From Streptomyces sp. NBC_01244 (GTDB lineage: Bacteria; Actinomycetota; Actinomycetes; Streptomycetales; Streptomycetaceae): a DNA stretch of 64,000 bases. The notes below the pieces were generated by a model that saw nothing but the letters and a program-made list of their open reading frames with translations, was not told the DNA's origin and did no database searches. The translations under genes were made by a program, and so were the position numbers. The stretch is from positions 9,449,469 through 9,513,468 of the forward strand of contig NZ_CP108488.1 in assembly GCF_035987325.1 (NCBI RefSeq), written 5' to 3'. Positions 24,874 through 44,243 of this stretch are shown here, in pieces (position 1 is the first letter of the stretch; every line of letters begins with the position of its first letter).

Positions 24874-26480
24874 AGACCGCCTTCCTCGGCGGCGTGTTCG
24901 TCCTGGTGGCGGGCGGGGTGGGGTTCGCGGGTTACGAGATGCTGGGCGGGGACTCGGACGCCGCGCAGCTGAACGCGTCCGGGTCCGGGGAGATTACGGC
25001 CGAGGAGGTCGAGCGGACATCGCGGGACTTCCTGGCGGCGTGGGCCCGCGGGGACGCGGACGCGGCGGGGACGCTGACCGACCACCCTGCGGCGGCCGCG
25101 GAGGCGCTGCGCGGCTTCCGGGAGACCGGGCACGTGGAGAACGCCGTGGTCACGCCGGGCGCGGCGAGCGGCGCCACGGTGCCGTACACGGTGAAGGCGA
25201 CCATCAATTTCGAGGGGCACGAGAAGGAGCTGGCGTACGCCTCGGAGCTGACCGTGGTGCGGGGCAAGAGCAGTGGGCGGGCGCTGGTGGACTGGCGGCC
25301 TGCGGTGCTGCACCCGAAGCTGATCGAGGGCGCGACCCTGCGGACCGGTAAGGCGAAGAGGGACTCGATCCAGGCGATGGACCGCGAGGGCCGGGAGCTG
25401 ACCGCCGAGAAGTACCCGTCGCTGGCCCCCGTGCTGGACACCCTGCGCACCCGGTACGCGGACGGGGCCGCGGGCGAGCCCGGCGTCGAGACCTGGATCG
25501 AGCCTGCCGACGCCGACGCGCCGAACCAGACGCTGCTCACCCTGGTCAAGGGAAAGACGAAGAAGGTCCAGACGACGCTGGACGCCGACGTACAGGCGGC
25601 CGCCGAGCGGGCGGTGAAGAAGTACGACCGGGCCTCGGTGGTCGCCGTCCGGCCCAGCACCGGCGAGATCAGCGCGGTCGCCAACAGCCCGGTCGGCGGG
25701 TTCAATGTGGCGATGGAGGGGGCGCAGGCCCCCGGCTCCACGATGAAGGTCGTGACCGCGGCGATGATGCTGGAGCACGGACTGGTCGGCGGACCGACCT
25801 CCCCGGTCGAGTGTCCGAAGGAGGTGACCTGGTCGGGCACGACCTTCCACAACAACAAGAACTTCTTCATCGAGAACGGCACCTTCCGGGACAGCTTCCG
25901 CCGCTCCTGCAACACCTTCTTCATGAAGGCGCTGGGCCCGCTGAACGCCAAGGGCGTGGAGGACACCGCCCTGAGCCAGACGGCCCGCAAGTATTTCGGC
26001 CTGGGCGGGGTGTGGTCCATCGGGATCGTCTCCACCGACGCGCGCATCCCGGTCTCGAAGGGCCCCGAGACGGCCGCCTCCTACATCGGCCAGGGCAAGG
26101 TCACCATGAACGCCCTCAGCGTCGCCTCCCTCTCGGCGACCGTGAAAAACGGTGCGTTCCGCCAGCCGGTGATCGTGCCCAGGGAGATGATCAAGGGCAA
26201 GTTGACCACCGCCCAGCCGCTGCCCGGGAACATGGCCGCCACCCTGCGCAGCGTGATGGGCGCCGCCGCGACCGACGGTACCGCCGCCAAGGCGATGTCC
26301 GCGGTCAGCGGCGACAAGGGAGCCAAGACCGGGTCGGCCGAGGTCGATGGGCAGAGCGACTCCAACAGCTGGTTCACCGGCTACGCGGACGACCTGGCCG
26401 CCGGCTCGGTCGTCCAGTCCGGCGGCTACGGCAGCGGGCCGGCGGGCGACGTCGTCGCGACCGTGCTGAACGCACGGTAG
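24858..26480 (+). CDS. Penicillin-binding protein, class B-like transpeptidase with NTF2-like domain
   Basis: The 540-residue protein has an N-terminal anchor helix (TAFLGGVFVLVAGGVGFAGY), an NTF2/MecA-N-like domain (EVERTSRDFLAAWARGDADA), a linker and a transpeptidase domain. All three catalytic motifs are present: S294-T-M-K297, S350-C-N352 and K490-T-G492. This class cross-links peptidoglycan outside the membrane and is the target of beta-lactams. There are no PASTA domains. The AGGGGAGG Shine-Dalgarno lies inside the upstream secreted-protein gene it overlaps. A BLIP-like protein is encoded 6 kb away; a link is speculative. Confidence 0.92.
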   Translation: MRSKVKTAFLGGVFVLVAGGVGFAGYEMLGGDSDAAQLNASGSGEITAEEVERTSRDFLAAWARGDADAAGTLTDHPAAAAEALRGFRETGHVENAVVTPGAASGATVPYTVKATINFEGHEKELAYASELTVVRGKSSGRALVDWRPAVLHPKLIEGATLRTGKAKRDSIQAMDREGRELTAEKYPSLAPVLDTLRTRYADGAAGEPGVETWIEPADADAPNQTLLTLVKGKTKKVQTTLDADVQAAAERAVKKYDRASVVAVRPSTGEISAVANSPVGGFNVAMEGAQAPGSTMKVVTAAMMLEHGLVGGPTSPVECPKEVTWSGTTFHNNKNFFIENGTFRDSFRRSCNTFFMKALGPLNAKGVEDTALSQTARKYFGLGGVWSIGIVSTDARIPVSKGPETAASYIGQGKVTMNALSVASLSATVKNGAFRQPVIVPREMIKGKLTTAQPLPGNMAATLRSVMGAAATDGTAAKAMSAVSGDKGAKTGSAEVDGQSDSNSWFTGYADDLAAGSVVQSGGYGSGPAGDVVATVLNAR

Positions 26481-26591
26481 GGCGGAGACGGTCCGGCCGA
26501 CAGCACGGAGACGGCCGGACGGGCCGAGGCGCACGATACGGCGGGAGGCTGTCGACGCCGTGGTGTGACTGCGCAGGTTGGTTGATTGTGA

Positions 26592-26966
26592 TCTTCGGTC
26601 GACGTCGCCTTTTTCGAGGACTCGCACGACGCCTGCGCTCGCACGATCCTCCAGTCCGGACTGCTCCTGGTCCGCGGGATTATCGAGCGCCGCGGCAGCA
26701 GGCGCACCGTCGTCGGTGAGAGGGCCTGGAACCTGGAAGACGTCGCGCTCGCACGCCGTGACCACGGTCCCCAGGCCGCCCTCGACCTCCTCGGCCGCAC
26801 CACACCCGCACCCACCCCAGCCCAGAATCCCAGCCCGCGCCCCGGCCGAACCCTGCTCGACGGAACCGCGGGGGCTCGCACCCACGCGTTCGCTGATCTC
26901 CAGCCCGCGGGGACCAGGTCGGCAGATCTGCGGCGTCTCGGGCACCGGAGCCCGGGATCGGCGGAG
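26592..26966 (+). pseudogene. dnaE2: 3' fragment of error-prone DNA polymerase dnaE2
   Basis: The frame encodes VAFFEDSHDACARTILQSGL, LLVRGIIERRGSRRTVVGER, AWNLEDVALARRDHGPQAAL and ADLQPAGTRSADLRRLGHRS. This is the C-terminal end of actinobacterial DnaE2/ImuC, the error-prone replicative-type polymerase of the mutasome. About 90% of the gene is absent; upstream DNA is the end of the penicillin-binding protein locus. The frame also runs on without a stop into the following Y-family start at 26976. It is a relic that shows a DnaE2/Y-family SOS cassette once stood here. Confidence 0.85.
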
Positions 26967-26975
26967 GTGATCGCG

Positions 26976-27246
26976 ATGACCACCACGGCCCGGAGCATCC
27001 TCCACATCCACCTGCACGGCCGCACCCCCGCCGACACCGACCGGTACGAGCAGGTCCTCGCCCTGCTGCGCGACATCACCCCGGCCGTACAGGCGCTGCC
27101 GCCCGATGCCGTCGTCATCGACATCACCGGCGCCCGCCGCTACTTCGACCAGAGCACCGAAGGCCTCGCCCACCTCGTCCGCCTCCGCATCACCGCGCAC
27201 ACGGGACTCCACACCACGATCGGAACCGGCCCCAACCGAACCCAGT
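26976..27246 (+). pseudogene. Y-family DNA polymerase, N-terminal fragment
   Basis: It starts MTTTARSILHIHLHGRTPAD and carries ALPPDAVVIDITGARRYFDQ and GLHTTIGTGPNRT, the N-terminal palm of an ImuB/DinB-like polymerase. It matches the intact paralogue at 27374 up to its GVGPSWS position. The sequence then stops making sense at about 27246. The missing C-terminal part lies 7.4 kb downstream at 34635-35375. The gene has therefore been split by insertion of a mobile element. Confidence 0.9.
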
Positions 27247-27373
27247 GGGTTCGACGATTCCCGGATGGCTCCACCAGGGAACCCGTCGCTCGATGTGCGT
27301 TGCGGCCCTTGGAGGGCGGCAGGTTCGGCGGAGGCAGTTTCTGCCGGGCGATCAGTCAGAGGGGGTGGTGGAC

Positions 27374-28348
27374 ATGAAGCAGCCGGTGTTCTTCCACATC
27401 CGGCTCCTCCGTAGTGACGGCGGCCGCGGGCTGCCCGAGCTTATGGAGGTCCTCCGCCGGTTCACCCCGGTCGCTCAAGCGTTGCCGCCTTCGGCCGCGA
27501 TCGCGCAGATGTCCGGCGCTCTTCGTCTGTTCGCCGTGGACCCCGTGGGCCTCGCGAACCGGCTCCGTCTTCAGGTTCTCGCGCTGTACGGGCTCGGCAT
27601 GTCGGTGGGGGTCGGCCCGTCGTGGTCGGTGGCGGCCATGGCGTCCGCCCGTGCCGGGGAGAGGGGGCTGCTGCTGGTCATGCCGTCCGAGACCAGCTCG
27701 TTCCTCAGGCCGCTGCCCATCGAGGACCTCTACGGGATCCAGCGCACCGCGGCGGCGCAAATCCGGACGCTCGGGGTCAACACCATCGGGCAGCTCGCGG
27801 ATCTGCCCGCCGTCACGGCAGCGCGGGTTCTCGGCAGGCCCGGGCCGGCTCTGCTGGAGCAGGCGCGGGGAATCGACCGCCGTGCCGTCGCCCCCGGGCG
27901 GGGGCCGCTGTCGGTCAGCCTCCGGGCAGACTTCCCCGGCGACGTCCTCGACGGGCCGCAGGTACGCGCCACCGCGCTTCGGCTCACCACGGAGCTCGGG
28001 GCACTCCTGCGCTCACGCGGACAGGCCGCGCGTACCGTCACCGTGACCGTCCGCATGGCCGACCGGAGTGAACTGGCGAAGACCCGGACCCTGCCGATGG
28101 CCTCCGCTCACACCGATGACGTGCGCCGGGTGGTGTACGAGGTGCTGGACGGTTTCGGGCTGCAGCGTGCCCGGATCCGCCGGATCGCCCTGACGGCCCA
28201 GACCGTCGACGGCGCGCAGGCGCCGACGCAGTTGACCTTTGATCCCGTCCGTGAAGCGCGTGTGCGTGCTGAGCCGGTCATCGACGCCCTCAACCGCCGC
28301 TACGGGCCGGGTACGGTCGGCCCGGCGGCCGCCATCACGGCGGCCTGA
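27374..28348 (+). CDS. Y-family DNA polymerase (ImuB/DinB-like), intact
   Basis: The 324-residue protein is similar along its length to the two split fragments. It has an N-terminal palm (MKQPVFFHIRLLRSDGG), a helix-hairpin-helix-containing thumb (LGVNTIGQLADLPAVTAARV) and a little-finger domain ending QLTFDPVREARVR. It lacks the first acidic DxD of classical DinB (here FHIRLL), as ImuB-like proteins do. It may therefore act as a clamp adaptor rather than a polymerase. GAGGGGG precedes the ATG. Its stop overlaps the convergent regulator by 49 bp. It lies inside the inserted element and may replace the broken resident copy. Confidence 0.85.
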   Translation: MKQPVFFHIRLLRSDGGRGLPELMEVLRRFTPVAQALPPSAAIAQMSGALRLFAVDPVGLANRLRLQVLALYGLGMSVGVGPSWSVAAMASARAGERGLLLVMPSETSSFLRPLPIEDLYGIQRTAAAQIRTLGVNTIGQLADLPAVTAARVLGRPGPALLEQARGIDRRAVAPGRGPLSVSLRADFPGDVLDGPQVRATALRLTTELGALLRSRGQAARTVTVTVRMADRSELAKTRTLPMASAHTDDVRRVVYEVLDGFGLQRARIRRIALTAQTVDGAQAPTQLTFDPVREARVRAEPVIDALNRRYGPGTVGPAAAITAA

Positions 28349-29307
28349 GGATCAGCTTTGTGACCTTCGACGATGGAAGTCAAGCCGTCGAGAAGTGCCT
28401 TGAGACCGAATTCGAAGAGCGCGTCGAGACGCAGGTCATAGCCGTCCCCGAAGGCTCCGACCACCTTGGTGAAGGTCGGGAAGCGGCCGGATTCCACCAG
28501 GTCCCGGAGGGCGGGGGCACGGCTGTCCATCCACTGGTCCTCCGACTGACCCGTGGCGGCTTCGGCGTGCGCTTCCATCTCCAGGTGCACCGCCAGGCCC
28601 TGGACATGGCTGTAGAGCAGGACGTGGATGTCGAACAGCGTCGTGGGGTCGAGACCGTGGCCGTCGAGGGCGCCCAGCATCCACTCGCCGTGGACCATCA
28701 GATTGGGCACGAGCAACGGGCGCGTGAGGGAGCCGAGCTGGGCCAGCCAGGGGTGCTTCCGGTACAGGCTCCACAGAGTCCGGGCTCCCAGCTCGATGCG
28801 GGTACGCCAGCCCTCGGGGGCGTCCGCGCCGTAGGACTCCTCGCCGAACGCGGCGTCGGCCATGTGCAGGACGAGGTCTTCCTTGCTCGGGACGTACCGG
28901 TAGGTGGACATCGCCGCGACGCCGAGCCGGGCCGCGACGCCGCGCATGGAGAGCGCCGAGAGCCCTTCGGCGTCGGCGATCTCGATGGCGGTACGGACGA
29001 TCCGGTCGAGGCTCAGCTCCTGCTCGGTGTCCGGGGCGGGTGACGGGCGCCTGCGGGCCGGCGCGGCGACGGCGGTTCCGGCGACGACCGTGCCGATCCG
29101 GGGCCGGGCCTCGACGAGTCCCTCCAGACGCAGGGTGGTCAGGGCCTTGGTGGCGGTGGCGAGTGCGACGCCCCATTCCCGGGCGATCTGCCGGGTCGAG
29201 GGAACTCGGTCCCCGGGGGCGAGTTCACCGTCCGCGATGCGCTGCCGGATCCCGGCGACGATGCGCAGATAGGGCGGATCACTGGCTGGGCCTGTGGTCT
29301 TCGTCAC
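28300..29307 (-). CDS. GntR/TetR fusion transcription regulator
   Basis: The 335-residue protein has a GntR-type winged helix at residues 10-75 (LRIVAGIRQRIADGELAPGD, STRQIAREWGVALATATKAL). A linker is followed by a second, TetR-type HTH (SALSMRGVAARLGVAAMSTY then RYVPSKEDL) with a helical TetR C-terminal ligand domain. Such double-HTH regulators are common in actinobacteria beside the enzyme they control. It diverges from the FAD monooxygenase at 29475 and probably represses it until a substrate drug or metabolite binds. Its 3' end overlaps the polymerase gene by 49 bp, tail to tail. Confidence 0.92.
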   Translation of the reverse strand: MTKTTGPASDPPYLRIVAGIRQRIADGELAPGDRVPSTRQIAREWGVALATATKALTTLRLEGLVEARPRIGTVVAGTAVAAPARRRPSPAPDTEQELSLDRIVRTAIEIADAEGLSALSMRGVAARLGVAAMSTYRYVPSKEDLVLHMADAAFGEESYGADAPEGWRTRIELGARTLWSLYRKHPWLAQLGSLTRPLLVPNLMVHGEWMLGALDGHGLDPTTLFDIHVLLYSHVQGLAVHLEMEAHAEAATGQSEDQWMDSRAPALRDLVESGRFPTFTKVVGAFGDGYDLRLDALFEFGLKALLDGLTSIVEGHKADPQAAVMAAAGPTVPGP

Positions 29308-29328
29308 GTCCTGCCACCTTCCTCTCTT

Positions 29329-29385
29329 GTACTAGTGCAGAGGGTAGCAGCGGCAACATCGAGTGGAAGGCGCCTGCTCTAGTAC
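29329..29385. promoter_or_regulatory. Paired operator-like sites between regulator and monooxygenase
   Basis: The 167-bp divergent intergenic region has GTACTAG at 29329-29335 and its inverse CTAGTAC at 29379-29385. The first sits in the near-palindrome CTCTTGTACTAGTGCAGAG. Two copies in a divergent promoter fit autoregulation and control of the monooxygenase by the adjacent regulator. No footprint can be claimed. Confidence 0.55.
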
Positions 29386-29474
29386 AGGCCTTGCATCTGG
29401 CCAGTTGAGCGGGGCTGTGCGTACGACGTACGTTCAGAGCGCGTACACCGTACAAGCCACTAGAGGGGCTTCTC

Positions 29475-30584
29475 ATGCAGACCGTACTCATCTCCGGTGG
29501 CGGCATCGCCGGGCCCGTCCTCGCCTACTGGCTGCGCCGCCACGGCTTCGCGCCCACCGTCGTCGAACGCGCTCCGGGCCGACGCCCCGGCGGCCAGGCC
29601 GTGGACATCCGCGGCGTCGCGCTCCAAGTCGTGGAGCGGATGGACCTGCTGGAGCAGGCGAGCAGGGTACGGACCCGCATGCGCGGCATGTCGATCCTCG
29701 ACCCCGACGGCCACGAGGTCGACCGCTCCACCGAGGCGACCTTCAGCAGCGGCCGGCTCGACAGCGAAGACATCGAGGTGCTGCGCGAGGACCTGGTCCG
29801 GATGGTGCACGAGCACGCGAGCGCAGGCGTCGAGTACCTCTTCGGCGACAGCATCACCGCGCTCGACGAAGACGAGACCGGGGTACGCGTCGACTTCGCG
29901 CACGGGCCGTCCCGAGTCTTCGACCTCGTGGTCGGGGCCGACGGCCTCCACTCCACCGTACGGCGCCTGGCCTTCGGTCCGGAGGAGCGTTACGCCCATC
30001 ACCTGGGCAGCTACCTCTCGGTGTTCAGCGCGGACAACTTCCTCGCCCTGGACCACTGGCAGGTGTGGCTGCGGGACGGCGACGCGGGCTTCGGCATCAT
30101 GCCTGTACGCGGCAACACCGAACTCAGGATCGCCTTCGGCTTCGAGTCCGCCCCTCTAGCCCACGACCTCCGCGACGGCGCCGCCCTCCGGCAACTCGTC
30201 GTCGACAAGCTCGCGTCGATGCGGTGGGAAGGGACCCGCCTGGCCGAGGCCGCCCGGCAGGCGCCCGACTTCTACTGCGACGCCATGGCCCAGATCCGCA
30301 TGGACCAGTGGTCGCGGGGCCGGGTGACTCTGCTGGGAGACGCCGGCTACTGCCCTTCCCCCCTCTCCGGGCAGGGCACCAGCCTCGCCCTCGTGGGCGC
30401 CCACGTGCTGGCCGACTGCCTGGCCCAGGGCATGGGCGACCACCGCACCGCGTATGCCCGCTACGAGCAGCGGATGCGCCCCTTCGGCACCCTCAACCAG
30501 GCCCTGGCCACCGAGAATCCCGGCGGACCCGCCTCCGAGGCATCCCTCGGGCACGCCAAGAACGCACTCTCCCTGGACAGCTGA
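29475..30584 (+). CDS. FAD-dependent monooxygenase (TetX / aromatic hydroxylase type)
   Basis: The 369-residue protein has an N-terminal FAD Rossmann motif (LISGGGIAGPVLAYWLRRHG), the DG motif VVGADGLHSTVRR near residues 155-168 and the GD motif LLGDAGYCPSPLSGQGTSLA near 290. This is the full set for group A flavin monooxygenases such as TetX, PgaE and salicylate hydroxylase. It starts at an ATG behind GAGGGG. With a divergent GntR/TetR regulator it forms a typical inducible detoxification or resistance pair and is the clearest cargo of the element. The substrate is unknown; tetracycline-like or rifamycin-like aromatics are possibilities only. Confidence 0.93.
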   Translation: MQTVLISGGGIAGPVLAYWLRRHGFAPTVVERAPGRRPGGQAVDIRGVALQVVERMDLLEQASRVRTRMRGMSILDPDGHEVDRSTEATFSSGRLDSEDIEVLREDLVRMVHEHASAGVEYLFGDSITALDEDETGVRVDFAHGPSRVFDLVVGADGLHSTVRRLAFGPEERYAHHLGSYLSVFSADNFLALDHWQVWLRDGDAGFGIMPVRGNTELRIAFGFESAPLAHDLRDGAALRQLVVDKLASMRWEGTRLAEAARQAPDFYCDAMAQIRMDQWSRGRVTLLGDAGYCPSPLSGQGTSLALVGAHVLADCLAQGMGDHRTAYARYEQRMRPFGTLNQALATENPGGPASEASLGHAKNALSLDS

Positions 30585-30625
30585 TGTCCTGTCCCGAACG
30601 GACACCAAAGCACGCAGGAGCAGCG

Positions 30626-32965
30626 CTACGGGGCGATAGGCAGAGGACGGGAGCGTTCGGGGTGGGCGGCGTTCAGGTAGCGCATCGCGGTGATGGGAGC
30701 GAGTCCGAAGAGGCGGATGAGGTGGACGGGGTCTTCGGTGTGCCGGGCCTCGTCGAGGATGCGGTCGGCGCGCAGACGGCCGGTCTGGAGACCGATACGC
30801 CGCAGCGGTGTGTTGATGGCGCTGCTGCTGATGCGTGGGTGGGTGTCGTCGTCGCAGGTTTGTGCGGTGACCAGGAGGTGGGGGTTGGTGCCGGCGGGCC
30901 AGCGCCGGTGCCGCTCGGCGAGCCAGGCGGTGATGAGCTGGTGGGTGAGTTCGTCGAGGTAGACGATGTGATCGAGGCGCCCGGTCCTGCGTACGGTCAG
31001 CTGTCCGCGGCTGCGGTGGAGATCGTCAAGGAGGAGACCGCGCTGGTCGTGGACGCTCAGGGCGTGGACTGCGGCCAGGGCAAGGCTGAGCTTGTTGCGG
31101 ACCTGGGGCAGCCGGTCCAGGGCTCCGGCGAGCTGTTGATCCGGCATGGGTCGGGGCAGCGGCCGGGCGGTGGTGAGGCTGATGTTGCGGGCCGGGTCCC
31201 GGAAGATCAACTTTTCGCGTTTCAGTGCGCGGAAGAACGAGTGGATGGCGACGCCGGTGCCCTTCCTTGGCTCGCCGGTGAGTCCCGCGAGCGCGTTCTG
31301 GACGTGGTCGCGGGTGATGGCGCGGAGGTCGTCGATGCCAGCCTCGTGCCAGGACTGTAGGCAGGAACGGACGCGGCGCACGTAGCCGCAGACGGTGGAG
31401 GGTGCCAGGGGCAGGCTGGGCTGTGACCCGGTATTGCACAGAACGTCGATCCAGCGGTGGACCCCGTCACGGAAGGGAGCCGGCACGTCGTCGGCGTGGC
31501 GGCGGGCGGAGGCGAGGAAGGCGTCGGACTTCGCGTCGGGGACCAGGAGGCCAACCGAGCGGAGGTAGTTGATCACTCTTGGAGCACAGCAGCCCTCGCG
31601 GCGGGCGAGGAGGCGGATGTCAGCTTCGTGGATCGGGGCGTCCACACCGAGGTGTGAAAGGAGGAGCCGTAGGGCGTTCAGGCTCGGCTGGCCGCTGATC
31701 ACGCTCCAGCCACGTGCCCGGATGTAGGTGGAGAACCCTTCCACGAGCCGTTGTGCGGCCGGGGTGAGCGGAGGCCGGGGACGGCCGTCGAGGCGGGTCC
31801 AGTCTCTGGGCAGGTGAAACATCATGAGCTGGCCGGGCAGGCCCAGGTGCTCGGAGACCGGGCGGGCAGCCGTGCGGGAGCCACCGACCACGCTGCGTCG
31901 CTTGCTCTGTAGGCGGCGGTGCCCGTAGAGGCCGGTCTGTTCGCCGGCCCGGTTCACGGTTGTCCGCTGACGCGGCGCGTAGGGGCCGCCGAACCACAGC
32001 TGGTCGGCGCCTTCCAGGGCAATCCCGTCGATGTCGTACGCGGTCTCGGCGAGGAAGCGCACACAGCGTCGGCAGTAGCCGTCGTGTAGCGGCAGCTCAC
32101 GCTCGCAGCGGTGGCAGCAGCCGGTCGGGTGCCGGTAACGCCACATCTCGCATTCCGTGCACCGCTGGACGTTCTCGTTCGTCCAGGCCAGGCAGTCGTG
32201 GCAGCTGCCCTGGCCCTTGGACCACCAGGCCGGAACAAGACGCGGCCTGGCACGGTCCAGGAGCCCGGCTCGCTTCAGGGCTTCGTGAAGGGTGGGGCGC
32301 ATCTGCGGGAGGTCGGCGAGCGTTTCGGGAGCGACGAGGTGGTCGGTGGGAGGGCGGGAGGCGAGCGCGAGGCGGGCGCCGTCTCCGGTGTGGAACAGCC
32401 ACGTCGGGCTGACGCCGCGCTCGGCGGCCATCGCGGTGAGGGCGGTGAGGACGAGGCCGAGGCCGGGGATGTCGCGGCCGCCGATCCGTCGTCCGTGGTC
32501 CCGGGTGAAGGCTCGCGGCCAGGGCGCGAAGAGGCCGAGCTGGCCGGGGACCTCTTCGACGCAGACGCCCGGATCATCCTGCCGCTCGGCGTGCTGGCCC
32601 CGGGCCCATACGGGCCGGTGGGCGGCCGGGCCTGTTGCTGCATACCGGGGTGGGAAGCTCCTCAGGGGTAGACCCACGATTTCCAGGGCCAGTTGCCGAG
32701 GCCGCCCAGGCGCCAAATCCTGGCGCTGGATTTCGGCCTGCAGCCAGTCCTCGTCCTCACCGAGGCGGACGGAGGTCCGGCATCCCCGGCACGTTCCGTC
32801 GACACCGACGATCGCCGGCCAGCCGCAGCGTCGGCACGCGGCCTGCCGCAATCTTCCCGTCTTCATCCGGTACGTCTCCGCCCGGCAGTCCACGCACAGG
32901 CCCATGCTTGTGACCCGGCCCCACAGCCCACACAGCCCGCACGACCCAGCCTTCCTCGCGGTCAT
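30626..32965 (-). CDS. Zinc-finger, recombinase-like protein (779 residues)
   Basis: The N-terminal 70 residues carry paired CxxC motifs (CGLC/CVDC, CRRC/CRGC). A second cluster near residues 255-310 has CHDC, CTEC, CHRC and CRRC. The last 400 residues resemble a tyrosine recombinase: SAM-like core-binding helices (FSTYIRARGWSVISGQPSLN) and a catalytic-like domain (VHDQRGLLLDDLHRSRGQLT to APITAMRYL). Arg and Tyr positions can be matched, but the usual HxxR block is unclear, so activity is uncertain. It is third in an operon with a tyrosine recombinase and an HTH protein. I infer a DNA-binding or second recombinase subunit. Confidence 0.75.
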   Translation of the reverse strand: MTARKAGSCGLCGLWGRVTSMGLCVDCRAETYRMKTGRLRQAACRRCGWPAIVGVDGTCRGCRTSVRLGEDEDWLQAEIQRQDLAPGRPRQLALEIVGLPLRSFPPRYAATGPAAHRPVWARGQHAERQDDPGVCVEEVPGQLGLFAPWPRAFTRDHGRRIGGRDIPGLGLVLTALTAMAAERGVSPTWLFHTGDGARLALASRPPTDHLVAPETLADLPQMRPTLHEALKRAGLLDRARPRLVPAWWSKGQGSCHDCLAWTNENVQRCTECEMWRYRHPTGCCHRCERELPLHDGYCRRCVRFLAETAYDIDGIALEGADQLWFGGPYAPRQRTTVNRAGEQTGLYGHRRLQSKRRSVVGGSRTAARPVSEHLGLPGQLMMFHLPRDWTRLDGRPRPPLTPAAQRLVEGFSTYIRARGWSVISGQPSLNALRLLLSHLGVDAPIHEADIRLLARREGCCAPRVINYLRSVGLLVPDAKSDAFLASARRHADDVPAPFRDGVHRWIDVLCNTGSQPSLPLAPSTVCGYVRRVRSCLQSWHEAGIDDLRAITRDHVQNALAGLTGEPRKGTGVAIHSFFRALKREKLIFRDPARNISLTTARPLPRPMPDQQLAGALDRLPQVRNKLSLALAAVHALSVHDQRGLLLDDLHRSRGQLTVRRTGRLDHIVYLDELTHQLITAWLAERHRRWPAGTNPHLLVTAQTCDDDTHPRISSSAINTPLRRIGLQTGRLRADRILDEARHTEDPVHLIRLFGLAPITAMRYLNAAHPERSRPLPIAP

Positions 32966-32968
32966 GGG

Positions 32969-33316
32969 TCAGTTCGGCGGGAGGCCGCAGGGCGCGCCGC
33001 GGCCACCTGGCTGCCTCGGTACCGGCCTTCCGCCGCTTCCGGCCCGCGGACGCTCGCCGGCCGCCGCCCTGAGATCGGGCTCCGCCGTCCCGGTGGCGGC
33101 GACGGGCTCGGCCTCCATCAGGTCCGCGACCGTACAGCCGAGTGCGGCGCAGATCATGTCGAGGTCTTCCAGCCGGACTGTCACCGGCTTGCCTGACCAC
33201 AACGCGGCCACCTTGCTCAGCGACGGGGTGAACCCGACCTCTTCGAACGCGGCCTTGAGGTGACTGGGTCGCCAGATGTCCCGCTTCGCGGCCGCCCACC
33301 GCAGGTTCCACTTCAC
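32969..33316 (-). CDS. Helix-turn-helix (XRE-like) protein of the recombinase module
   Basis: The 115-residue protein starts from a GTG that overlaps the recombinase stop as GTGA. The N-terminal 70 residues form a Cro/CI-type HTH: LKAAFEEVGFTPSLSKVAAL, WSGKPVTVRLEDLDMICAAL, GCTVADLMEAEP. The remainder is a disordered Gly/Arg/Pro tail. Its stop is only 3 bp before the zinc-finger gene, so the three genes are translationally coupled. It may regulate the operon or act as an excision or directionality factor. The family known from Streptomyces integrative elements is of both kinds. Confidence 0.85.
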   Translation of the reverse strand: MKWNLRWAAAKRDIWRPSHLKAAFEEVGFTPSLSKVAALWSGKPVTVRLEDLDMICAALGCTVADLMEAEPVAATGTAEPDLRAAAGERPRAGSGGRPVPRQPGGRGAPCGLPPN

Positions 33317-34482
33317 CGTGTCACGCCTCCCCACTCCAGCCGGCGAACAGCACGCCGGGACGATTCCAGACTGGACCGCTCGGGGTCGCCCTTCGCGGTG
33401 GCCAGGTAGCCGACCGTCGTGGTTGGCCACTCGTGCCCGAGCAGTACCTGCACATCCCACAACGGCATCCCCGACTCGTAGTTGTGGGTCGCGCACGCGT
33501 GCCGCAGCAAATGCGGGAAGAGCACCGTCACCGTGCCCGACAGATGTGCAAGCGACGCGGCGCGCAGCGCCCGGCGGAAGGTGTCCGCGTGGACCGGTTC
33601 CGCCCCCGCCACGTCCGACGCGAGGGAGGTCGGCAGCCGCTCGGAGGGGAAAAGCGGTGCGTACGGGTCGAGGGGATCATCGTGGAACAGGCCCCGGATC
33701 TCCTCGACGTACCACCACAGCAGCTCACGACCCTCGGCGAACATGAACGCCTCGCGCTCCCGGGCACCGGAGCCGCGGGCGCCTTTGCCCCGTACGAGGA
33801 AGCGGCCCCATTGGCCGTTGTCCCAGTGCAGGTCCCCGAGCCGGACCAGGCACAGCTCGGTCGCCCGCACCCCGGAGAGGTAGGCGACCTTCGCCATGAC
33901 GTAGTTCCGGACCGCGACCGGGTACTTCCGTGAGTCCGCGAGGACACCGCGCCAGGCGGTGAAGAACACCTTCATCTCCGCCTGGGACGGCGGGATCCTC
34001 AGCCCGAAATCACCCCGGTGCCGGGGCCGGTTGAACGCGTCCACCGGTGAGGCGACCGCCGCCCCGAACCGGCGCAGGATCTCGCCGGCGTAGCGCTGCT
34101 CCAGGAACGCGAAGTAGTGGTCGATCTTCGTGATCTTCTGCCGGTTCGTCGAGTGAGCGCGTTTACCCGGCCCGGAGAAGTACTGGTCCAGGGCCCGCGG
34201 GCTCAGCTCCCACGGCACGATGTCGTAGAAGCCGCACACCTCGATCACCGGCTGGATCAGCTGATTCAGCGTGCTCCCGGCGAGACCGGCGACGTCCCGC
34301 GCCCAGCAGTACTCCGCCAAGGTGTCCTGGAACAGAGCCCGCTCGTCGTCCCGCGACGCCCCCGTCGCAGCGCGGCGCTGCAGCGTCACCACATCGGCCA
34401 GACCGTCCTGCGGCCCAGCCGATTCTGTCGTCGTACCGCTCCCGCCGATCAGCGTGAAACGGCGGGTACCGGAATCCACCAC
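33313..34482 (-). CDS. Tyrosine recombinase / integrase
   Basis: The 389-residue protein has a SAM-like core-binding domain at about residues 50-130 (TLAEYCWARDVAGLAGSTLN) and a catalytic domain with the expected residues. These are Arg in SGVRATELCLVRL, HLLRH (HxxR) in LFPHLLRHACATHNYESG, a distal His in LLGHEWP and the nucleophilic Tyr in TTTVGYLATAK. It is first in the mobility operon, reading inward from the right end of the element 148 bp away. That is the usual place for an integrase gene. It probably cuts the end and the polymerase-gene target. The ORF start at 34482 is not strongly supported; a few residues may be extra. Confidence 0.93.
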   Translation of the reverse strand: MVDSGTRRFTLIGGSGTTTESAGPQDGLADVVTLQRRAATGASRDDERALFQDTLAEYCWARDVAGLAGSTLNQLIQPVIEVCGFYDIVPWELSPRALDQYFSGPGKRAHSTNRQKITKIDHYFAFLEQRYAGEILRRFGAAVASPVDAFNRPRHRGDFGLRIPPSQAEMKVFFTAWRGVLADSRKYPVAVRNYVMAKVAYLSGVRATELCLVRLGDLHWDNGQWGRFLVRGKGARGSGAREREAFMFAEGRELLWWYVEEIRGLFHDDPLDPYAPLFPSERLPTSLASDVAGAEPVHADTFRRALRAASLAHLSGTVTVLFPHLLRHACATHNYESGMPLWDVQVLLGHEWPTTTVGYLATAKGDPERSSLESSRRAVRRLEWGGVTR

Positions 34483-34634
34483 AAGTAGGAAAATTACGGT
34501 GGGAACTCCTGAAATCCTGGAGAAAGCAGCAAATTTTCACACGTTCGCGTGGAACTTCCGCCACCCCTCTTGACCAGTGCGAACAGGACCAACGAAGCAT
34601 CCAGGGCTCGACCGGAACCCGTCGGAACTCCAGT

Positions 34635-35375
34635 TGCGCCCTGGCCGCGATGGCCGCCGCCGTCACCCCACCCGGTGAACTGCGCACGATCCCCGACGAT
34701 CCCGCCGCGATCCGTGCCTTCCTGCGGCCCCGCCCAGTAGGCCTGCTCCTCGGGGTCGGGCCGGCCACCGCCAAAACCCTGGCCCTCCACGGCCTGCACA
34801 CCATCGGCAACCTCGCCGACGTCCCCCTGCTCACCCTCCAACGCCTCCTCGGTATCGCCCTCGGAAGAGCCCTCCACGAAGCCGCCCACGGCCACGACCA
34901 CCGGCCCGTCCTCGCCGAACCGATCGCCCAGTCCATCAGCGCCGAGCACCGCTTCCCCACCGACGAACTCGACCCCGTCGAGCACCACCGAGCCCTCCTC
35001 ACACTGACCGGGCACCTCGGCGCCATCCTGCGCGCTGACCACAAGGCCGCGTCAGCCGTGGCCCTGACCGTGCGCTACGCGGACGGCTCCACCACCACCC
35101 GCAGCCGCACCCTCCCGGAAGCCACCGCCCACACCTTCCTCCTCACCCGCACCGCCTACGACCTGTACGCCACGCTCTCCCTGCAACGTGCGCGCGTACG
35201 AGCGATCTCCTTGCGAGCACAGGGCCTGCGTGCGGCCGACGAGGCGCCGCGCCAGCTCACCTTCGACCCCGACGTCGACAAGTTGCTGGCCATCGAGGCC
35301 GTCGCGGACCGGGCCCGAAACCGCTACGGGGATGGCGCAATCAAGCCCGCCAGCCTGGCGCACGCTGCGCGCTGA
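34635..35375 (+). pseudogene. Y-family DNA polymerase, C-terminal fragment
   Basis: The frame picks up with CALAAMAAAVTPPGELRTIP and continues PRPVGLLLGVGPATAKTLAL, HGLHTIGNLADVPLLTLQRL and the little finger down to QLTFDPDVDKLLAIEAV. It has no start of its own. It complements the fragment at 26976-27246: together they make about 335 residues, the length of the intact paralogue. This is the right-hand half of the gene split by the 7.4-kb insertion. It ends 10 bp before the convergent lipoprotein gene. Confidence 0.9.
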
Positions 35376-35384
35376 ACCTCTTGG

Positions 35385-35921
35385 TCACCTGTATGTGCCG
35401 TGGCAGAGCTGGGTGATGGCCGGACTGGTGACCCCGTGCGAGGAGCGGCACAGTTCGGCCATGGAGACACGACCCGGAGCCGGGACCGCAGCCGGGCGGG
35501 AGCGCTGAGGAACCGCGGGCTTCGACGTCCGCACCTTGCGCGGCTTCGCCTTCACTTTGGCCTTCACCTTGGCTTTCGAGGCCGGGCGCTGCGGGCTGGA
35601 CTGCTTCGCTTTCACCCGCTGCCGTACCGTCCGCGCTCCCGTGCCCGATCCGTCGGCCTTCGTCGTGCGGGGCTGTTCCCGGCGAGGGGGTACGGCCGAC
35701 GGGTTCTCCTCGGGCGCGATCACCACGGCAGGAGCGGGCGGCCGGCTGTCGGGCAACGGCGTCAGCGGCAGCGCCCCACCGGTCTCCCGCTGGGCAGCGG
35801 GGGCCGGGACCGAGGCTTTCGTCCGGTCCTGCGGGGGCTTGTTGTCGACGGGGGCGACGGAGACGCACCCCGCCGTGGCCAGGAGGACAGCGAGGAGCAG
35901 GGGGAGGGTCCGGCGGTTCAC
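35385..35921 (-). CDS. Lipoprotein with basic Lys/Ala-rich tail
   Basis: The 178-residue protein from GTG 35921 has signal VNRRTLPLLLAVLLATAGC with lipobox ATAGC. The middle is Pro/Ala/Arg-rich and disordered. A strongly basic stretch (KAKQSSPQRPASKAKVKAKV and on) could contact teichoic acids or DNA at the surface. A short conserved-looking C-terminus, MAELCRSSHGVTSPAITQLC, carries two Cys. I do not recognise a family. It lies in the same direction as the frameshifted membrane protein gene upstream (36038-36852), 116 bp away. Confidence 0.7.
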   Translation of the reverse strand: MNRRTLPLLLAVLLATAGCVSVAPVDNKPPQDRTKASVPAPAAQRETGGALPLTPLPDSRPPAPAVVIAPEENPSAVPPRREQPRTTKADGSGTGARTVRQRVKAKQSSPQRPASKAKVKAKVKAKPRKVRTSKPAVPQRSRPAAVPAPGRVSMAELCRSSHGVTSPAITQLCHGTYR

Positions 35922-37494: not shown

Positions 37495-40400
37495 TCAATC
37501 CTGGTTTTGGTAGACCCTGGTTACGTTCATTGTTCCATGGATCAGGTAGACCTCTTCGACCGTCGAGCCGCGGGTCCACTGTCGAATCCGATTGTTTACC
37601 TTGTCCTCCGCCTTCCCGAAGTCCAGGTCGGCCCCCCGGATGTCGAGGTAGACGGCCTTCACGTGCTGCTCATGTGCTTTCTTGAGCCTTTTGTCGACGG
37701 CATTATAGGTCGTGGGCGCCTTGAACTCCGAGCGCACGCCATCGACGTAAGCGTCACCGTATCCGTCGGTGTCATCCCGGGACATCACCTTACGCCCATC
37801 GAGGGCAAGCGCGAACGCGATGGCATATTCAGCGTTGTCGAATCCCTTTCCACCGTTCTTCATCTTCATCTCCTTGGTGGCCCAAGATTCATCAATTTGC
37901 CCAGCCGCTTTCGCTACCAGCGTGGAAGCGTATAGTTCCGTACCCCCTTCGTATGCATTGCAGAACGATTGGTCTCCACCGCGTGAGCGGCACTGGTACT
38001 CGAAGCCGTCGCCCACTGCGTCGACCCATTCTGATGCATAGTGCATTCCAGCCAGGATCTGTGCAATGCGTTCACGCTTGAATTTCTCATTGAGGTCGGG
38101 GTCCCTGTTATCTTTCTCTTCATCGTACGTCGGAGGCTTCTTTCCGGTGTTCCGGTCACTTCCACTGCCGCCGCCGCCAGTACCGCCGCGGGGGACGCCT
38201 CGGCCCTGGCTGGAATTGGGGTCTGTGCTCTCCGTGTGGCCGGTGCCGTCGTCGAGGCCCATGCCCGTCGGGTCGGAGAACGCGAGGGGGTTGTTGGCTC
38301 CGTAGGTGTAGCCGTTGAGGGTTTGGTGCCTGCCGAGTTCCAGAAGCGGGTCGACGCTGAGGAACTGGCCAGCGTAGGGGTCGTACTCGCGGGCACCGAT
38401 GTGGGTGAGCCCGGTGCTGGTGTCGGCGGACTTACTGAGGAAGCGCTTGTCGTCCGGCCAGGTGCCGACGGTGTCGCCGCGGGGGGCGCCGAAGGGGGTG
38501 ATGTAGCGCTTGCTGACGGTCTGCTCGTCGCCGCTGTCGATGGCGACTGAGGAGGTGCCGTGGTGGTCGCTGGCGAGGAAGGAGACCTTCGAGGTGCCAC
38601 TCTCGTTGCTGCGGACCGCTACGCGCTGGCCGCCGAGGGTGTAGTAGCGGTTGGCCCACTTCTTGGTGCCTTGGAGGTGGACCTCGGTGGCACCGGCGTA
38701 GAGGACGGTTTCGCCGCTGGTGTTGCGGCGGATGAGGAGTTCGCCGTCAGCGTCGTACAAGTACGAAGTGGTGTCGGTTCCCTCTACGAGCTTGCTGAGC
38801 TTGTTCTCACCGTTCCAGGTCAGGTTCTGGCTGTCGGTGCTGGAGGGGGCGCGCAGGCGCTTGGTGGTGTTGCCGCTGTCGTCATAGGTGTACTGGTCCG
38901 CGACGCCCGTGCAGTCGGCGCCGGTGGTGGTGGCGGCGAGTGCGTGCTTGCGGGTGGTGTCGTAGCAGTAGGTGCGTTTGGTGGTGCTGGAACCGGTGTG
39001 CGTGGTTTCCGAGGCGCGCTGGCCGCCTGTGTTGTAGGTGTAGGACTTCCAGTAGGAGGCGGGACCTCCGAGGCTGGCCGTGGTGGGGCCGGTGCTGGCG
39101 CAGTCGGCGGTCTTCGGGGTCCAGGCTTCGGTTAGGCGGCGCTGGCCGTCGTAGGTGAAGCACTGGTAGTCGGCCGCGCTGGCACCGCTGACGGTCGCCG
39201 CGTCGAAGATCGACTTGATGTTGCCGACGTCGTCATGGGTGTAGGTGGCTTCCTGGACGAGCCCGTGGGTGGGTTCGTAGACGGTGGTGCCCTTGAGGCG
39301 GCCGGTGCCTTCCTCGAAGGTGTTGAGGATGTCGACGTCCTTGACGCCGAGGGCGCCGGAGCGGGAGAGCGTCAGTTTCTGGAGCTGTCCGAGGGGCGAG
39401 TAGTCGGCCCTCTGGACGTATCCGGAGGTTCCGGATAGGCCGTCCGGCAGCAGGTGGTCGTTGTAGTCGGTCTCGATGGCCTCCGAGGGAAGGCCGCTGG
39501 CCGCGGGCTCGACTGCGGTGGAGACGGTGCCGTCTTCCCAGAGGTTCGTCTCGTAGGCGGTGGTCGCCTTGATGGCGCCCGAGGTGACCAGCGGGTCGTC
39601 GGCGGGCAGCGTCAGCTCTGTTGTGGCGGGCCGGCCGAGGGAGTCGTACCGGGATATCTCCTTGGTGTAGGCCTTGCCACTCGTGCCGCCGACGTAGCGG
39701 ACGGCTGCGGTCGGCGCTCCCCGCAGGATCGTGTCGTAAGTCCAGGAGGCCAGCTTGTTGGCGTCCGTGCGGGAGGTCTGCCACTTGTCGGTCTTGCGGC
39801 CGAGCTCGTCGTAGGAGTACAGGAGCGTGGTGCCGCGGGCGTCGTCCGTGCTGGAGACCTGGTCCAGGGACGTGTAGTGCGTCGTGGTCGTACCGCGGTC
39901 CGGGTCGGTGGCGGTGCGCTGACGGCCGTAGAGGTCGTAGGTGTACAACCACTTGCTGCTGTCCGGACCAGTGACCGTGGCAGGCTTGCCGTCACGGGTG
40001 AGCGTGTACTTCACGCTGGTGTAAGCGGTGCCGAGGGTGGCACCGTACGCGGCGTCATCGGGCTGCTCACCCGCGTACGTCCGGGTTTCCGTCGTCCGTC
40101 CCAGGGCGTCGGTGATGGTACGAGAGGCCGTGCCCCCGTCAGGGGCGGTGGTGGCTACGGAGTCGCCGGTGTAGTTGGTGATGGTGGACCACTTTTCGAG
40201 GCCGTTGACCAACAGCTCTGACGTCGTGGGCCGACCCGCGGCGTCGAAAGTGGTCTTGGTCCGGGGGAAGGGCCCGCCGGCGGCGACGGACGCGTAGATG
40301 CCGTCCGGTTTGGCTTCAGTGCCGTCTTTCAGTTTGTCTTGCCAGGCGTCGGCATAGGTGTCGTCGGCGAGGCCGCGGGAGTCGTAGCGGGTGCCGGTGA

Positions 40401-43400
40401 GGATGCGTCCGCCGTTGGGGGAGGGGCTCTGGGTCTGCAGCGGGCGCAGCAGGGAGTCGGAGATCGAGTAGACCGAGGGCCGGTAGGTGGCGTTGTCGTG
40501 CTTGAGACGGGTGACTGAGGTCCAGGGTGCGGATCCGCGCTTGTAGGAGTACCCGTACTTGACGTTCGGGGAGTGTCCGGCGGCCTGACTGCGGTTGGGG
40601 AGCCAGCTGCCGGTGACACGGCCAAGCGCGTCATAGGAACTGCTGGTGAAGTCCTGGTTCGCGCCTTCGACCTTGATCACCGCACCGCGGGCGGGGTCGA
40701 AGTATGTGTAGGTCCGGTGGGTCTGCCCGTTCGATTCCAGCTTGGGCGCGGCGCCCACAGTGGCCGTGAGGGGGCCGACTGCCGTCGGGGTGTAGGCGGT
40801 CGTGGCGGTGTTGCCTGCCGCGTCGGTGGCACTCAGGGGCCGGCCGAGGCTGTCGTAGGTGGCGCTGGAGAGCTTCTGCCAGCCGTCCGCCTCGGACGGG
40901 GTCCGCGGGTTGGTGCCGTTGGCGGCCGGGTAGGCCTTGGCCCGGCCGGTCCAGGTCGCCAGGCCCTTGGTCGGGACGCGCCCATCCTTCCAGCCGGTGA
41001 CCGTGGCGTCGTCGTAGACGGTGGCGGTGTCGGAGATGACATCACCACGGCTGGTGAGCGAGGTAGGCAGTGTCAGCTTGTCATCGGTGACGTCGTTGCC
41101 GTCGGTATCGGCGCACGCCTGGCCCACGGTCCGGGTACGGGAGACGAGACTGGTCAGGCCCACGTCTTCGTTACGGGCGTACCAGGTGTTCGTGCAAGTG
41201 TTGTCGCCGCTCTCGGAGAGGTCACCGAAGGCGTTGACTCGGGTGATCATGCCGAGGTCGTCGTACTGGTAGTCGGTCTGGGTCCTGCGGAAGGTGCCCG
41301 GGGTGGTGAGGTAGGCGTAGCCGGACGCGCGTGAGGTATAGACCCGTGAGGCGGTGATGGTCTTGTCGACGACCTGCTTGCCTTCGCTGTCCTTCTTGTA
41401 GACCGTCTGGGCAGCTGTGTTCGTGTACCCCGGGAAATTCAGGGACGCCGAGAGGACGGCTGCTCCGTTGTAGGTGACGGACTGGCGCAGGAACCCGGCG
41501 AGCTGGTCGTAGTCGGTGGTGTCCGAGATCTCGATGGAGCCGGCGCCGTCGATGTCGATGACGGGTACCTTGTTGGTGCGCGTGACCTTCGGGTCGGCCG
41601 TCTTGTCGCCGTACATGCCCTGCATGTACACGTTGGTGGTCTTGGAGCGGTTGGAGTCGACGCCGACGTAGGTGGTGACCCGGCCGTATCCGCGCCAGCT
41701 GGACCAGGTGCGGTCCTCCTCCTTGGTCATGGGGTCGTCGTTGTAGCGCCAGGCGGGCTTCTCGTACTCGTATGAGGTGGAGACGGTGGCGGCGGTGACG
41801 GCGTCCGTGGTGGTGACGTTGGTGACGCGGTACTTGTGGAACCAGCTCAGCGCGGTCGGGCCGCCGTTGGGCTTCCACTTCACTGGGTAGCAGGGCCGGG
41901 TGGCGTCGGTGTTGTTGTCTTCCGCGGTCGGCATCTTGGTGCCGCTGACACACTGCGGGTCGGTCAGGTTGATTCTGGTTGTCGCCCCGGTCTCCGAGGT
42001 GATGGTCTGCATGCGGGGACGGTTGAACGCCAGAATGTTCTCGCGCGGCACGTCGATGCGGTTGGGCAGGTTCTGGTACTGGAAGTCGACCGGGTCCAGC
42101 TTGAGGTCGGTGCCGTTCTTGCCGGTGCGGACGATCGACTTGAGGGCCAGGATCTTCTCGCTCGGAGCGTTGAGATCGACCGGTGGCCTGTACGCCGAGT
42201 CAAGGGCGTAGCTGTCGACGTCGGTGAAAGCGTCCGGCTCGAGCGCGGTGGACCACACCTGCGTGTTGATGTCGGTCAGGCGCTTGCGGGTGAAGAAGGA
42301 AGGCCCCGTGGCCCGGCAGTCTGTCGCTGTGCTGGCGCAGATGGAGTCGAAGGGGACGTCGGGCCAGTTGTCGGCGGTGTCCTCGGTGAGTGAGGAGCAG
42401 TCGGAGTCGCAGCGCTCCTCATAGGTGAAGGCGACCCGGCCGGAGGCTATACCGGTGAAGAGCGCGCCGGCCCGCTGCCCGTACTTGATCTCCTTCAGGT
42501 AGCCACCGCGCGTGTAGGAGCCCAGCGCCGTCTTGTCGCCGTTCTTCGCGTAGTAGTTGCCCTCCTTGGTGTACCAGTACGTGGAGGCGTTGCCCTGCAG
42601 GTCCTGGACCAGGTCCAGGTTCCAGCGCCAGGCCTGCTGAACGGAACGCCCGGAGAAGGTAGTGGTAGCGCCCTTCTTGTAGCCGGGCTCTTTCTCGTCG
42701 TCACCGAAGACGGGAACGGTCCACACCGAGTTGGTCTCGGTGCCTGCGGGTGCGCCAGGGAGCTTGTTCAGGCCGAACGTGTAGGTGGTGCCGTTGCCGG
42801 TGACCACCTTCCAGTACTCGCCGTCCTTGTCGTCCGGGTTGGTGTCGGGGTCACCGTCGTCGGTGCTGCCGGCGCCATATCCGCGGATGACCTTCGTGCC
42901 GTCGTCGTTCTTCAGGCGCCAGGTGTTGCCCTTCGTATCGGAAGGGTCCTTGACGAGTTCGTTGGCCTTGCCGTTCAGGACGAGGGAGGCGTTGTCGTAC
43001 TTCCAGCACAGGTCGTACTTACCGGCCTGACCATCGTCCTCGCACGAGCCGTACTTGCGCTCGATGTAGGAGGAGGTCAGATCGAAGCCCTCACCGACCT
43101 GGGTCCCCTGGTTGTTGGTGTTGGCCGTGCGGCCGTCGAGGGACCCCGTGTCGTAAGACAGCGACAGCGCCGGCATGGGGCCCGCTGCCGCGGGCGGCAC
43201 CGTGATCGGGTAGGACCAGCTGAACGATCCAGATGATCCGCCGGCCTCCCAGGTGGAAGAGCTGGCGAGCGGGGTGGCCTTGTAATCGCCACCGCCCGAG
43301 GACGAGGCGAGGGTCGTGGCCATCACCGCGAGCACCGTGGTTGCGGCCGAGGCGGCACCCATCGACGGCGGACTGAGCGGCTCGACCTGACCCCGGACCA

Positions 43401-44085: not shown

Positions 44086-44167
44086 AAAATCTCCAGAGCG
44101 GACGAGCCGCGGGGTAGGGGTGTGTGTGACTGGTGATGGGCACACGGCGTAGACATGGGGGCCGGCA

Positions 44168-44196
44168 GGCCGGGGCCGCGGTCTGCGGCCCCGGCC
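44168..44196. terminator. Intergenic hairpin between LamG and YD-repeat genes
   Basis: Arms GGCCGGGGCCGC and GCGGCCCCGGCC enclose a 5-base loop. A smaller hairpin, CTGCCCT/AGGGCAG, lies at 44215-44232. They sit in the 158-bp gap inside the operon and may attenuate transcription into the toxin gene or protect the upstream message. Confidence 0.6.
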
Positions 44197-44243
44197 GCTA
44201 AGCGCGGGCCCTGGCTGCCCTCCAGAGGGCAGCGGTGTCTGGA

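What the first reader, a model, noticed from the sequence alone, without database searches (positions are those of the whole stretch)
26592..35375. Mobile element has split a Y-family polymerase gene next to a dnaE2 relic
Residues 1-89 of a Y-family polymerase are at 26976-27246 and the rest at 34635-35375, with 7.4 kb between. A three-gene recombinase operon lies against the right junction, and both junctions share CCAGT and imperfect inverted ends. The resident locus is a dnaE2/Y-family mutasome cassette, and the element itself carries an intact Y-family polymerase. An element that inserts in a mutasome gene and brings its own copy could alter mutation rates in the host. I know of no description of such an element.
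Basis: partly seen in the sequence, partly recalled or inferred. Interest (0 to 1): 0.82.

Follow-up and report, generated by a model that had tools for sequence, protein, structure and literature searches.

The report
Transposon splitting a mutasome helper gene
In this Streptomyces-type genome a 7.4-kb jumping element sits at one exact codon of a DNA-repair helper gene; relatives of the element have hit the same codon in other species, and this one carries a gene of the kind it breaks.

Summary
A 7,398-bp transposon (27238-34635) splits a Y-family gene just after codon 87. Its flanks join into one in-frame 333-aa ORF, and an uninterrupted homologue, 90% identical and equally long, exists. The recombinases (389 aa, 779 aa, small HTH protein) fit the published actinobacterial Tn554-related transposons.

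It is not a one-off. In a 36-row recombinase tree, the window's supported 9-row clade has 7 members at this site of a Y-family gene; a sister-clade member makes 8. These need 8 changes on a 69-row Y-gene tree. One empty site aligns over 900 of 900 bases without a gap.

The carried Y gene recurs at the left end of the S. sporangiiformans element (66% identity, dN/dS 0.27), and LUP47B keeps a short relic. It appears catalytically dead: an ImuB/DinB2-like accessory, not a polymerase.

Precedents exist: islands in rulB/umuC, and Tn552-II with a target-like gene. That the cargo replaces the broken gene is inferred. The window's dnaE2 is a relic; an open dnaE2 with its own Y gene lies elsewhere in the genome.

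The parts
26544..26960 (+). dnaE2 relic (last part of the gene only)
   Evidence: 66% identity to residues 1089-1223 of 1225 of the S. sp. CB00316 DnaE2; 2 TGA inside the stretch
26976..27237 (+). 5' part of the split Y-family gene (87 codons plus one base)
   Evidence: Pfam IMS; joins in frame with 34636
27238..34635 (.). whole transposon, 7,398 bp
   Evidence: ends by comparison with related elements and by the in-frame join; base-resolved empty site of a relative
27238..27261 (+). left end of the transposon
   Evidence: 22 left ends aligned, conservation starts here (found by a motif search)
27374..28348 (+). cargo Y-family gene, 324 aa, ImuB/DinB2-like
   Evidence: Pfam IMS_C; 66% homologue at the same place of the S. 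sporangiiformans element
28300..29307 (-). cargo: GntR-TetR type regulator, 335 aa
   Evidence: Pfam GntR, TetR_N, TetR_C_1
29475..30584 (+). cargo: FAD-dependent monooxygenase-like protein, 369 aa
   Evidence: Pfam FAD_binding_3; NCBIfam matches all below their curated cut-offs
30626..32965 (-). recB: long tyrosine recombinase, 779 aa
   Evidence: Pfam Phage_int_SAM_1 at 520-585; NCBIfam XerC/XerD-type matches below cut-off
32969..33316 (-). small HTH protein, 115 aa
   Evidence: Pfam HTH_26
33313..34482 (-). recA: tyrosine recombinase, 389 aa, overlapping the HTH gene by 4 bases
   Evidence: Pfam Phage_integrase; coordinates
34612..34635 (+). right end of the transposon
   Evidence: 34 right ends aligned, conservation stops here (found by a motif search)
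34636..35375 (+). 3' part of the split Y-family gene
   Evidence: Pfam IMS_C and IMS_HHH_1; in-frame join

Best explanation
It is a transposon of the actinobacterial Tn554-related kind (two tyrosine recombinases, one ordinary and one long, with a small HTH protein). The window's recombinase clade prefers one conserved spot, just after the GxGPN/GxGPS motif, in genes for inactive Y-family proteins of the kind coupled to the error-prone polymerase DnaE2. Shown by sequence: exact ends, no target duplication at the base-resolved site, the same codon hit in 8 genomes on separate branches of the Y-gene tree (both junctions seen in 5), one fixed orientation, and a shared cargo Y-family gene at the left end of two elements. 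Inferred: the recombinases recognise the DNA of the motif and insert the element there; the cargo gene, which lies just inside the left end on the target's strand, comes under the broken gene's transcription and supplies a substitute accessory protein, lowering the cost of insertion. The confidence given is for the site-preferring Tn554-type insertion; for compensation alone I put about 0.4.
For: In-frame join of the flanks; uninterrupted homologue of equal length; base-resolved empty site G140 against LUP47B, 900 of 900 bases without a gap; 8 of 36 recombinase rows in Y genes, 7 of 9 in the window's clade, label clustered (1 of 500 shuffles as low); 8 changes on the Y-gene tree; site scores ranking 1-6 in own flanks for 4 of 5 Y sites; cargo clade 97/89 and dN/dS 0.27; cargo about 130 bp inside the left end in two elements and a nine-residue relic there in LUP47B.
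Against: Two of 9 clade members sit elsewhere: S. sporangiiformans, which carries the cargo gene, and S. fuscichromogenes, whose site ranks only 1206 of 28042. Of 6 clade members with both ends seen, 2 carry the Y gene intact, 1 as a relic and 3 not. Apart from the window's, none of the other elements carries a match to its own target. No LexA-type box near the element. Three of the 8 insertions have only the right junction. No movement was observed.
Confidence: 0.8

Rival explanations
1. Passive capture: the cargo Y gene is a piece of an earlier target locus carried off by an imprecise event and does nothing for the element; the clade simply has a DNA preference that Y genes meet.
For: The closest other relative of the cargo genes is a dnaE2-linked gene (G350); cargo absent or relic in 4 of 6 resolved clade members; one of the two intact carriers is not in a Y gene.
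Against: Both cargo copies are open, one clade, dN/dS 0.27 and at the same distance from the left end although the rest of the cargo differs.
Confidence: 0.4
2. Reversible switch: excision restores the Y gene and the element toggles damage-induced mutagenesis, as SpyCI does with mutL.
For: Exact in-frame restoration if the element left precisely; both gene parts are still open in the window.
Against: For SEs, elements with a similar recombinase pair, attL x attR recombination leaves no empty site (PMC10214605). The window's dnaE2 is a relic, and the C-parts in G040 and S. albicerus have decayed.
Confidence: 0.08
3. Decoy or landing pad: the cargo Y gene offers a spare insertion site and shields host genes or allows tandem insertion.
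For: Tn552-II carries att copies in its target-like gene (PMC12486829).
Against: The homologous position in both cargo genes scores 5.8 and 7.4 against 19.6-26.2 for the Y sites used (those sites trained the matrix, and leave-one-out they score 7.9-15.4).
Confidence: 0.08
4. No mobile insertion: the split is an assembly fault or a rearrangement of unrelated fragments.
For: Chromosome-arm location and a decayed dnaE2 beside it.
Against: The same structure appears in other assemblies, with a gapless empty site and an equally long intact homologue.
Confidence: 0.01

Closest known systems
Actinobacterial Tn554-related transposons (Van Houdt et al. 2012, PMC3414803; passages and section 10 read)
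   Same: One long and one ordinary tyrosine recombinase next to each other, a small third gene, actinobacterial plasmids and chromosomes.
   Different: The passages and section read name no target genes; here a clade prefers a Y-family codon and carries a Y-family gene.
Tn552-II of Staphylococcus (PMC12486829; parts 1 and 2 of 3 read)
   Same: tnpABC transposon that carries a gene like its target (tgl); its authors suggest rescue of the target; the chromosomal target is yolD-like.
   Different: Different host and target gene; a 7-bp brought-in att is seen there, none is visible here.
Integron-like elements in rulB of Pseudomonas (Rhodes et al. 2014, PMC4542609; passages read) and the umuC island of ICEPan (PMC4458695; passages and section 14 read)
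   Same: Tyrosine-recombinase elements in Y-family genes; one ILE has a RulB-like gene inside; UmuC is interrupted at residue 88 in several cases.
   Different: Other recombinases; a 3-bp repeat reported for the ILE; the target is UmuC-type; for ILEs the target's SOS promoter is proposed to drive the recombinase, whereas here the recombinases point the other way.
SEs and GInts (PMC10214605, passages and section 3 part 1 read; PMC5385486, passages read)
   Same: Ordinary plus large tyrosine recombinase, inverted ends, target preference.
   Different: Four conserved genes instead of three; 6-bp footprint in SEs.
SpyCI in mutL of Streptococcus pyogenes (PMC3430984; abstract read)
   Same: A mobile element interrupts a DNA-repair gene at a fixed site.
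   Different: Prophage-like, mismatch repair, shown to excise and reintegrate.
S. coelicolor DinB2-DnaE2 pair (PMC6511836; passages read)
   Same: Inactive Y-family protein coupled to DnaE2 without the ImuB C-terminal domain: the kind of gene that is split here.
   Different: Not mobile; orthology to the split gene was not tested.

Membership tests
Actinobacterial Tn554-related transposon | One ordinary (about 350 aa) and one long (611-828 aa) tyrosine recombinase, adjacent and in one direction | tested here: met
   389 aa (Phage_integrase) and 779 aa (Phage_int_SAM_1), same strand, with the small HTH gene between
Actinobacterial Tn554-related transposon | Third small gene related to TnpC | tested here: inconclusive
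   A 115-aa HTH_26 protein is present; relation to TnpC not tested
Actinobacterial Tn554-related transposon | Sequence relation to Tn554 TnpA/TnpB | not tested
   No Tn554 sequence was compared; relatives lie in plasmids of Streptomyces, Rhodococcus, Arthrobacter and others
Tn554 in the strict sense | No target duplication | tested here: met
   900 of 900 bases without a gap between LUP47B flanks and the empty site; in-frame join in the window
Tn554 in the strict sense | 6-7 bp brought in from the donor site at one end | tested here: inconclusive
   Right terminal octamer CTCCANTW is largely conserved across 34 elements with different targets, but the search motif covers most of it
RIT element | Three adjacent tyrosine recombinases | tested here: not met
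   The middle gene matches HTH_26 and no integrase family
SE / GInt | Four conserved genes | tested here: not met
   Three conserved genes in line; tblastn of the three in relatives
ImuB | Catalytically inactive Y-family protein | tested here: inconclusive
   Ala for the catalytic Glu in P0001 aligned to a solved Pol IV; motif I and the cargo protein judged by eye; positions recalled
ImuB | Linked to dnaE2 | tested here: met
   dnaE2 relic upstream in the window, full dnaE2 before the split gene in CB00316 and before the cargo relative in G350
ImuB | ImuB C-terminal extension | tested here: not met
   324 and 333 aa; IMS_C ends at residue 287 of 324 (cargo) and 204 of 241 (C-part), no further domain found
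ImuB | ImuA partner | not tested
   No ImuA search was made

The most novel reading that the evidence does not exclude
A transposon lineage specialised on the DnaE2 partner of Streptomyces: it breaks the host's ImuB/DinB2-like gene at a fixed codon and puts its own divergent version in its place, so that damage-induced mutagenesis (or replication of the chromosome ends) runs with an element-encoded accessory protein.
Probability: 0.2. Interest if true: 0.82.

Novelty: new variant of a known kind. Interest (0 to 1): 0.57.

Why it matters
Three groups of tyrosine-recombinase elements now appear to break genes of damage-induced mutagenesis, each with at least one case that carries a gene like the broken one: islands in rulB/umuC of Gammaproteobacteria, Tn552-II at a yolD-like gene, and this clade in Streptomyces. 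Such repeated choice would mean that mutasome genes are favoured landing places, perhaps because they are conserved in sequence yet dispensable; that is inference. It offers a testable case of a transposon that pays for its landing site with a substitute gene. According to PMC4513846 (passages) one of DinB1 or DinB2 is needed to replicate linear Streptomyces replicons, so the broken class of gene may matter beyond mutation rate. The carriers and the empty relatives named here are ready material.

Tried and rejected
CCAGT as a target repeat: rejected. Inverted copy in the left chromosome arm as an empty site: it matches 34761-35866 at 92.7% but begins downstream of the junction, so it says nothing about the insertion. 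Target-like cargo as a rule of the whole family: of 23 elements only the window's has an interior match to its own target; for L154 that call used a right end other than, and the left end of L052 is doubtful; the S. sporangiiformans element was not in that call. The tblastx version gave noise and was not used. S. fuscichromogenes as a look-alike site: it looked alike by eye but scores poorly. LexA-type box (pattern recalled): none in 26000-28400; one before dnaE2 of G350; none in the stretches for CB00316, NBC_01445 and the open dnaE2 of the window's genome.

Rows left out: L043 and L099 from the end alignments, L096 for want of a right end, L052 from the left ends; L099 from the recombinase tree (36 of 37 loci); L100 and L101 from the second Y tree as duplicates. 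In one search the C-parts of G040 and S. albicerus were read in a wrong frame; one search replaces that tree. Many recombinase matches were not fetched or examined. Ends were found with a motif, so conservation inside the motif is partly by construction; the drop outside it is not. Print: searches listed no paper that I recognised as describing Y-family-targeted elements in Streptomyces; most listed papers were seen only as titles and abstract starts.
Full report
What is there. The window is the right end of contig C1 of a 10.0-Mb genome; that the sampled genus is Streptomyces I infer from the named relatives. A Y-family gene begins at 26976 beside a dnaE2 relic, is broken after 262 bases and resumes at 34636. 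Between the parts lie, left to right, a second Y-family gene on the same strand, a GntR-TetR regulator and an FAD monooxygenase-like gene; then, reading leftwards from the right junction, a 389-aa tyrosine recombinase (here recA), a 115-aa HTH protein and a 779-aa tyrosine recombinase (recB). recA and the HTH gene overlap by four bases.

Exact ends. Comparison of related elements gave a right end GAACCCG-N6-CTCCANTW and a left end GAARC-N4-GGGTTCG-N2-GATTC, with exceptions. The window's element is then 27238-34635, 7,398 bp. Its flanks join as GTGPN^RALAAMA, 1,002 nt with only the final stop. The best database match is an uninterrupted 333-aa protein of Streptomyces sp. NPDC060031, 90% identical; another, of NPDC056401, is annotated from just upstream of the site and runs across it; a third, of NPDC051546, starts just after the site and may be split too, which was not checked. 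At DNA level the clearest empty site is G140 against Streptomyces sp. LUP47B: 900 of 900 bases align without a gap at 89%, with the LUP47B element exactly at the proposed point and no duplicated base.

The target recurs. recA was searched in 392 genomes of the genus (179 with a match at E 0.001 or better, many distant), 394 of the family (18 at E 1e-150 or better), a collection of species genomes (13 loci) and plasmids (164 records). Of these, 37 loci were examined for ends and target and 36 entered a tree. Eight lie in a Y-family gene: the window, G040, G054, S. olivochromogenes, S. sp. CB00316, S. albicerus, S. sp. LUP47B and S. sp. NBC_01445. Five have both junctions at the same codon and join in frame. 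G040, S. olivochromogenes and S. albicerus show only the right junction; for G040 the 5' part was not found in two neighbouring stretches of about 20 kb. The window's clade of 9 (support 100/99) holds 7 of the 8; G054 lies in the sister group. The two other members sit elsewhere: S. sporangiiformans by its right flank and S. fuscichromogenes at a site unlike the Y sites. In all eight the recA end faces the 3' part of the gene.

Independence. In a tree of 69 Y-family proteins the 8 split genes need 8 changes. They fall in two subfamilies, and the genes of the window, LUP47B and S. olivochromogenes each have a close intact sister. The intact rows come from searches with the window's own genes, so they are not a random sample. 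Leave-one-out scores of the 28-bp site rank four of five Y sites 1st to 6th among 27,538-29,272 positions in their own flanks and the fifth 31st. Because Y genes are homologous, this cannot separate DNA recognition from shared ancestry of the motif.

Other members hit other genes. By my reading of joined flanks these include a NUDIX box (WE^LPGG, G390), a GGDEF protein (G020) and DNA-ligase-like genes (G339, G308), besides unidentified ones; no family search was made for them.

The cargo Y gene. It is 324 aa and matches IMS_C. Its best matches among 392 genomes, both 66%, are in G350 and G239. G239 and S. sporangiiformans share a contig of equal length, 110,214 bases, with the element on it; there the gene starts about 130 bp inside the left end, as in the window (136 bp). 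The two cargo genes form one clade (97/89); the G350 gene, which grouped with them in the earlier tree, follows a full-length dnaE2 with a GAAC-N4-GTTC box upstream. Pairwise dN/dS values are 0.23-0.28. In LUP47B a nine-residue relic of the gene's start stands at the same place. Of six clade members with both ends seen, two carry the gene intact, one as a relic and three not.

Activity. P0001, the uninterrupted homologue of the resident protein, aligned to a solved Pol IV, keeps the Asp of the Asp-Glu pair but has Ala for the Glu. The window's own N-part has the same residues there and reads HIHLHG where motif I would be (by eye). The cargo protein reads SAAIAQ at the Asp-Glu position when set beside the resident one (by eye; the alignment printed begins later). 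Active-site positions are recalled. Timinskas and Venclovas describe an inactive DinB2 coupled to DnaE2 in S. coelicolor without the ImuB C-terminal domain (passages). 'Polymerase' should therefore read 'probably inactive accessory protein'.

Consequences for the host. The dnaE2 beside the split gene is a relic, while an open dnaE2-like gene (1146-aa frame, 56% identity) followed by another Y gene lies at C1:9012014-9016422. The insertion probably did not abolish the mutasome. The recombinases point against the Y gene, so the target's promoter cannot drive them, unlike the model proposed for ILEs in rulB; where it is still present it could drive the cargo gene.

Prior work. The recombinase pair fits the actinobacterial Tn554-related class, although no Tn554 sequence was compared. 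Islands in rulB and umuC, one with a RulB-like gene, are known in Gammaproteobacteria. Tn552-II carries a gene like its target, for which its authors propose a rescue role. Hence 'new variant of a known kind': another host group, another target gene class, a target-like gene shared by two elements, and no brought-in spacer visible. Searches listed no report of this in Streptomyces that I recognised; most subscription papers are not held.

Limits. No movement was seen. The count of Y insertions is a lower bound, since only examined recombinase loci can reveal one; among the 392 sampled genomes I found 4 (G000, G040, G054, G292). The S. sporangiiformans element was put together from two overlapping stretches of one contig and contains further insertions. 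Whether recB is catalytically complete was not established; a direct alignment with recA was weak.

Noticed in passing
34761-35866 and 63723-63998: Inverted copies in the left arm of the same contig: 92.7% for 34761-35866 (to C1:18008-16905) and 89% for the last 276 bases (to C1:273-1). Looks like a terminal inverted repeat with a displaced fragment.
   Followed up: partly
28300-30584: GntR-TetR regulator and FAD monooxygenase-like gene as further cargo; the best NCBIfam matches of the latter, one of them a tetracycline-destructase model, stay well below the curated cut-offs.
   Followed up: no
L042 and L043 (G019): Two 4,194-bp elements with identical recA proteins at different sites of one genome, which suggests recent movement.
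   Followed up: no
L049 and L050 (G179): Elements of equal length on two contigs with the same printed flanks; a duplicated region or an assembly effect.
   Followed up: no
L055, L046, L053, L054: Other branches of the family appear to sit in conserved motifs of other genes (NUDIX box, GGDEF, DNA-ligase-like), by reading the joined flanks.
   Followed up: partly
L129 (G239, S. sporangiiformans): The 16.9-kb element there holds further insertions and a large transporter-like ORF and regulators beside the cargo Y gene.
   Followed up: partly
37495-44292: Very long minus-strand ORF (2265 aa) of RHS/YD-repeat look (recalled; no family search made) near the contig end.
   Followed up: no
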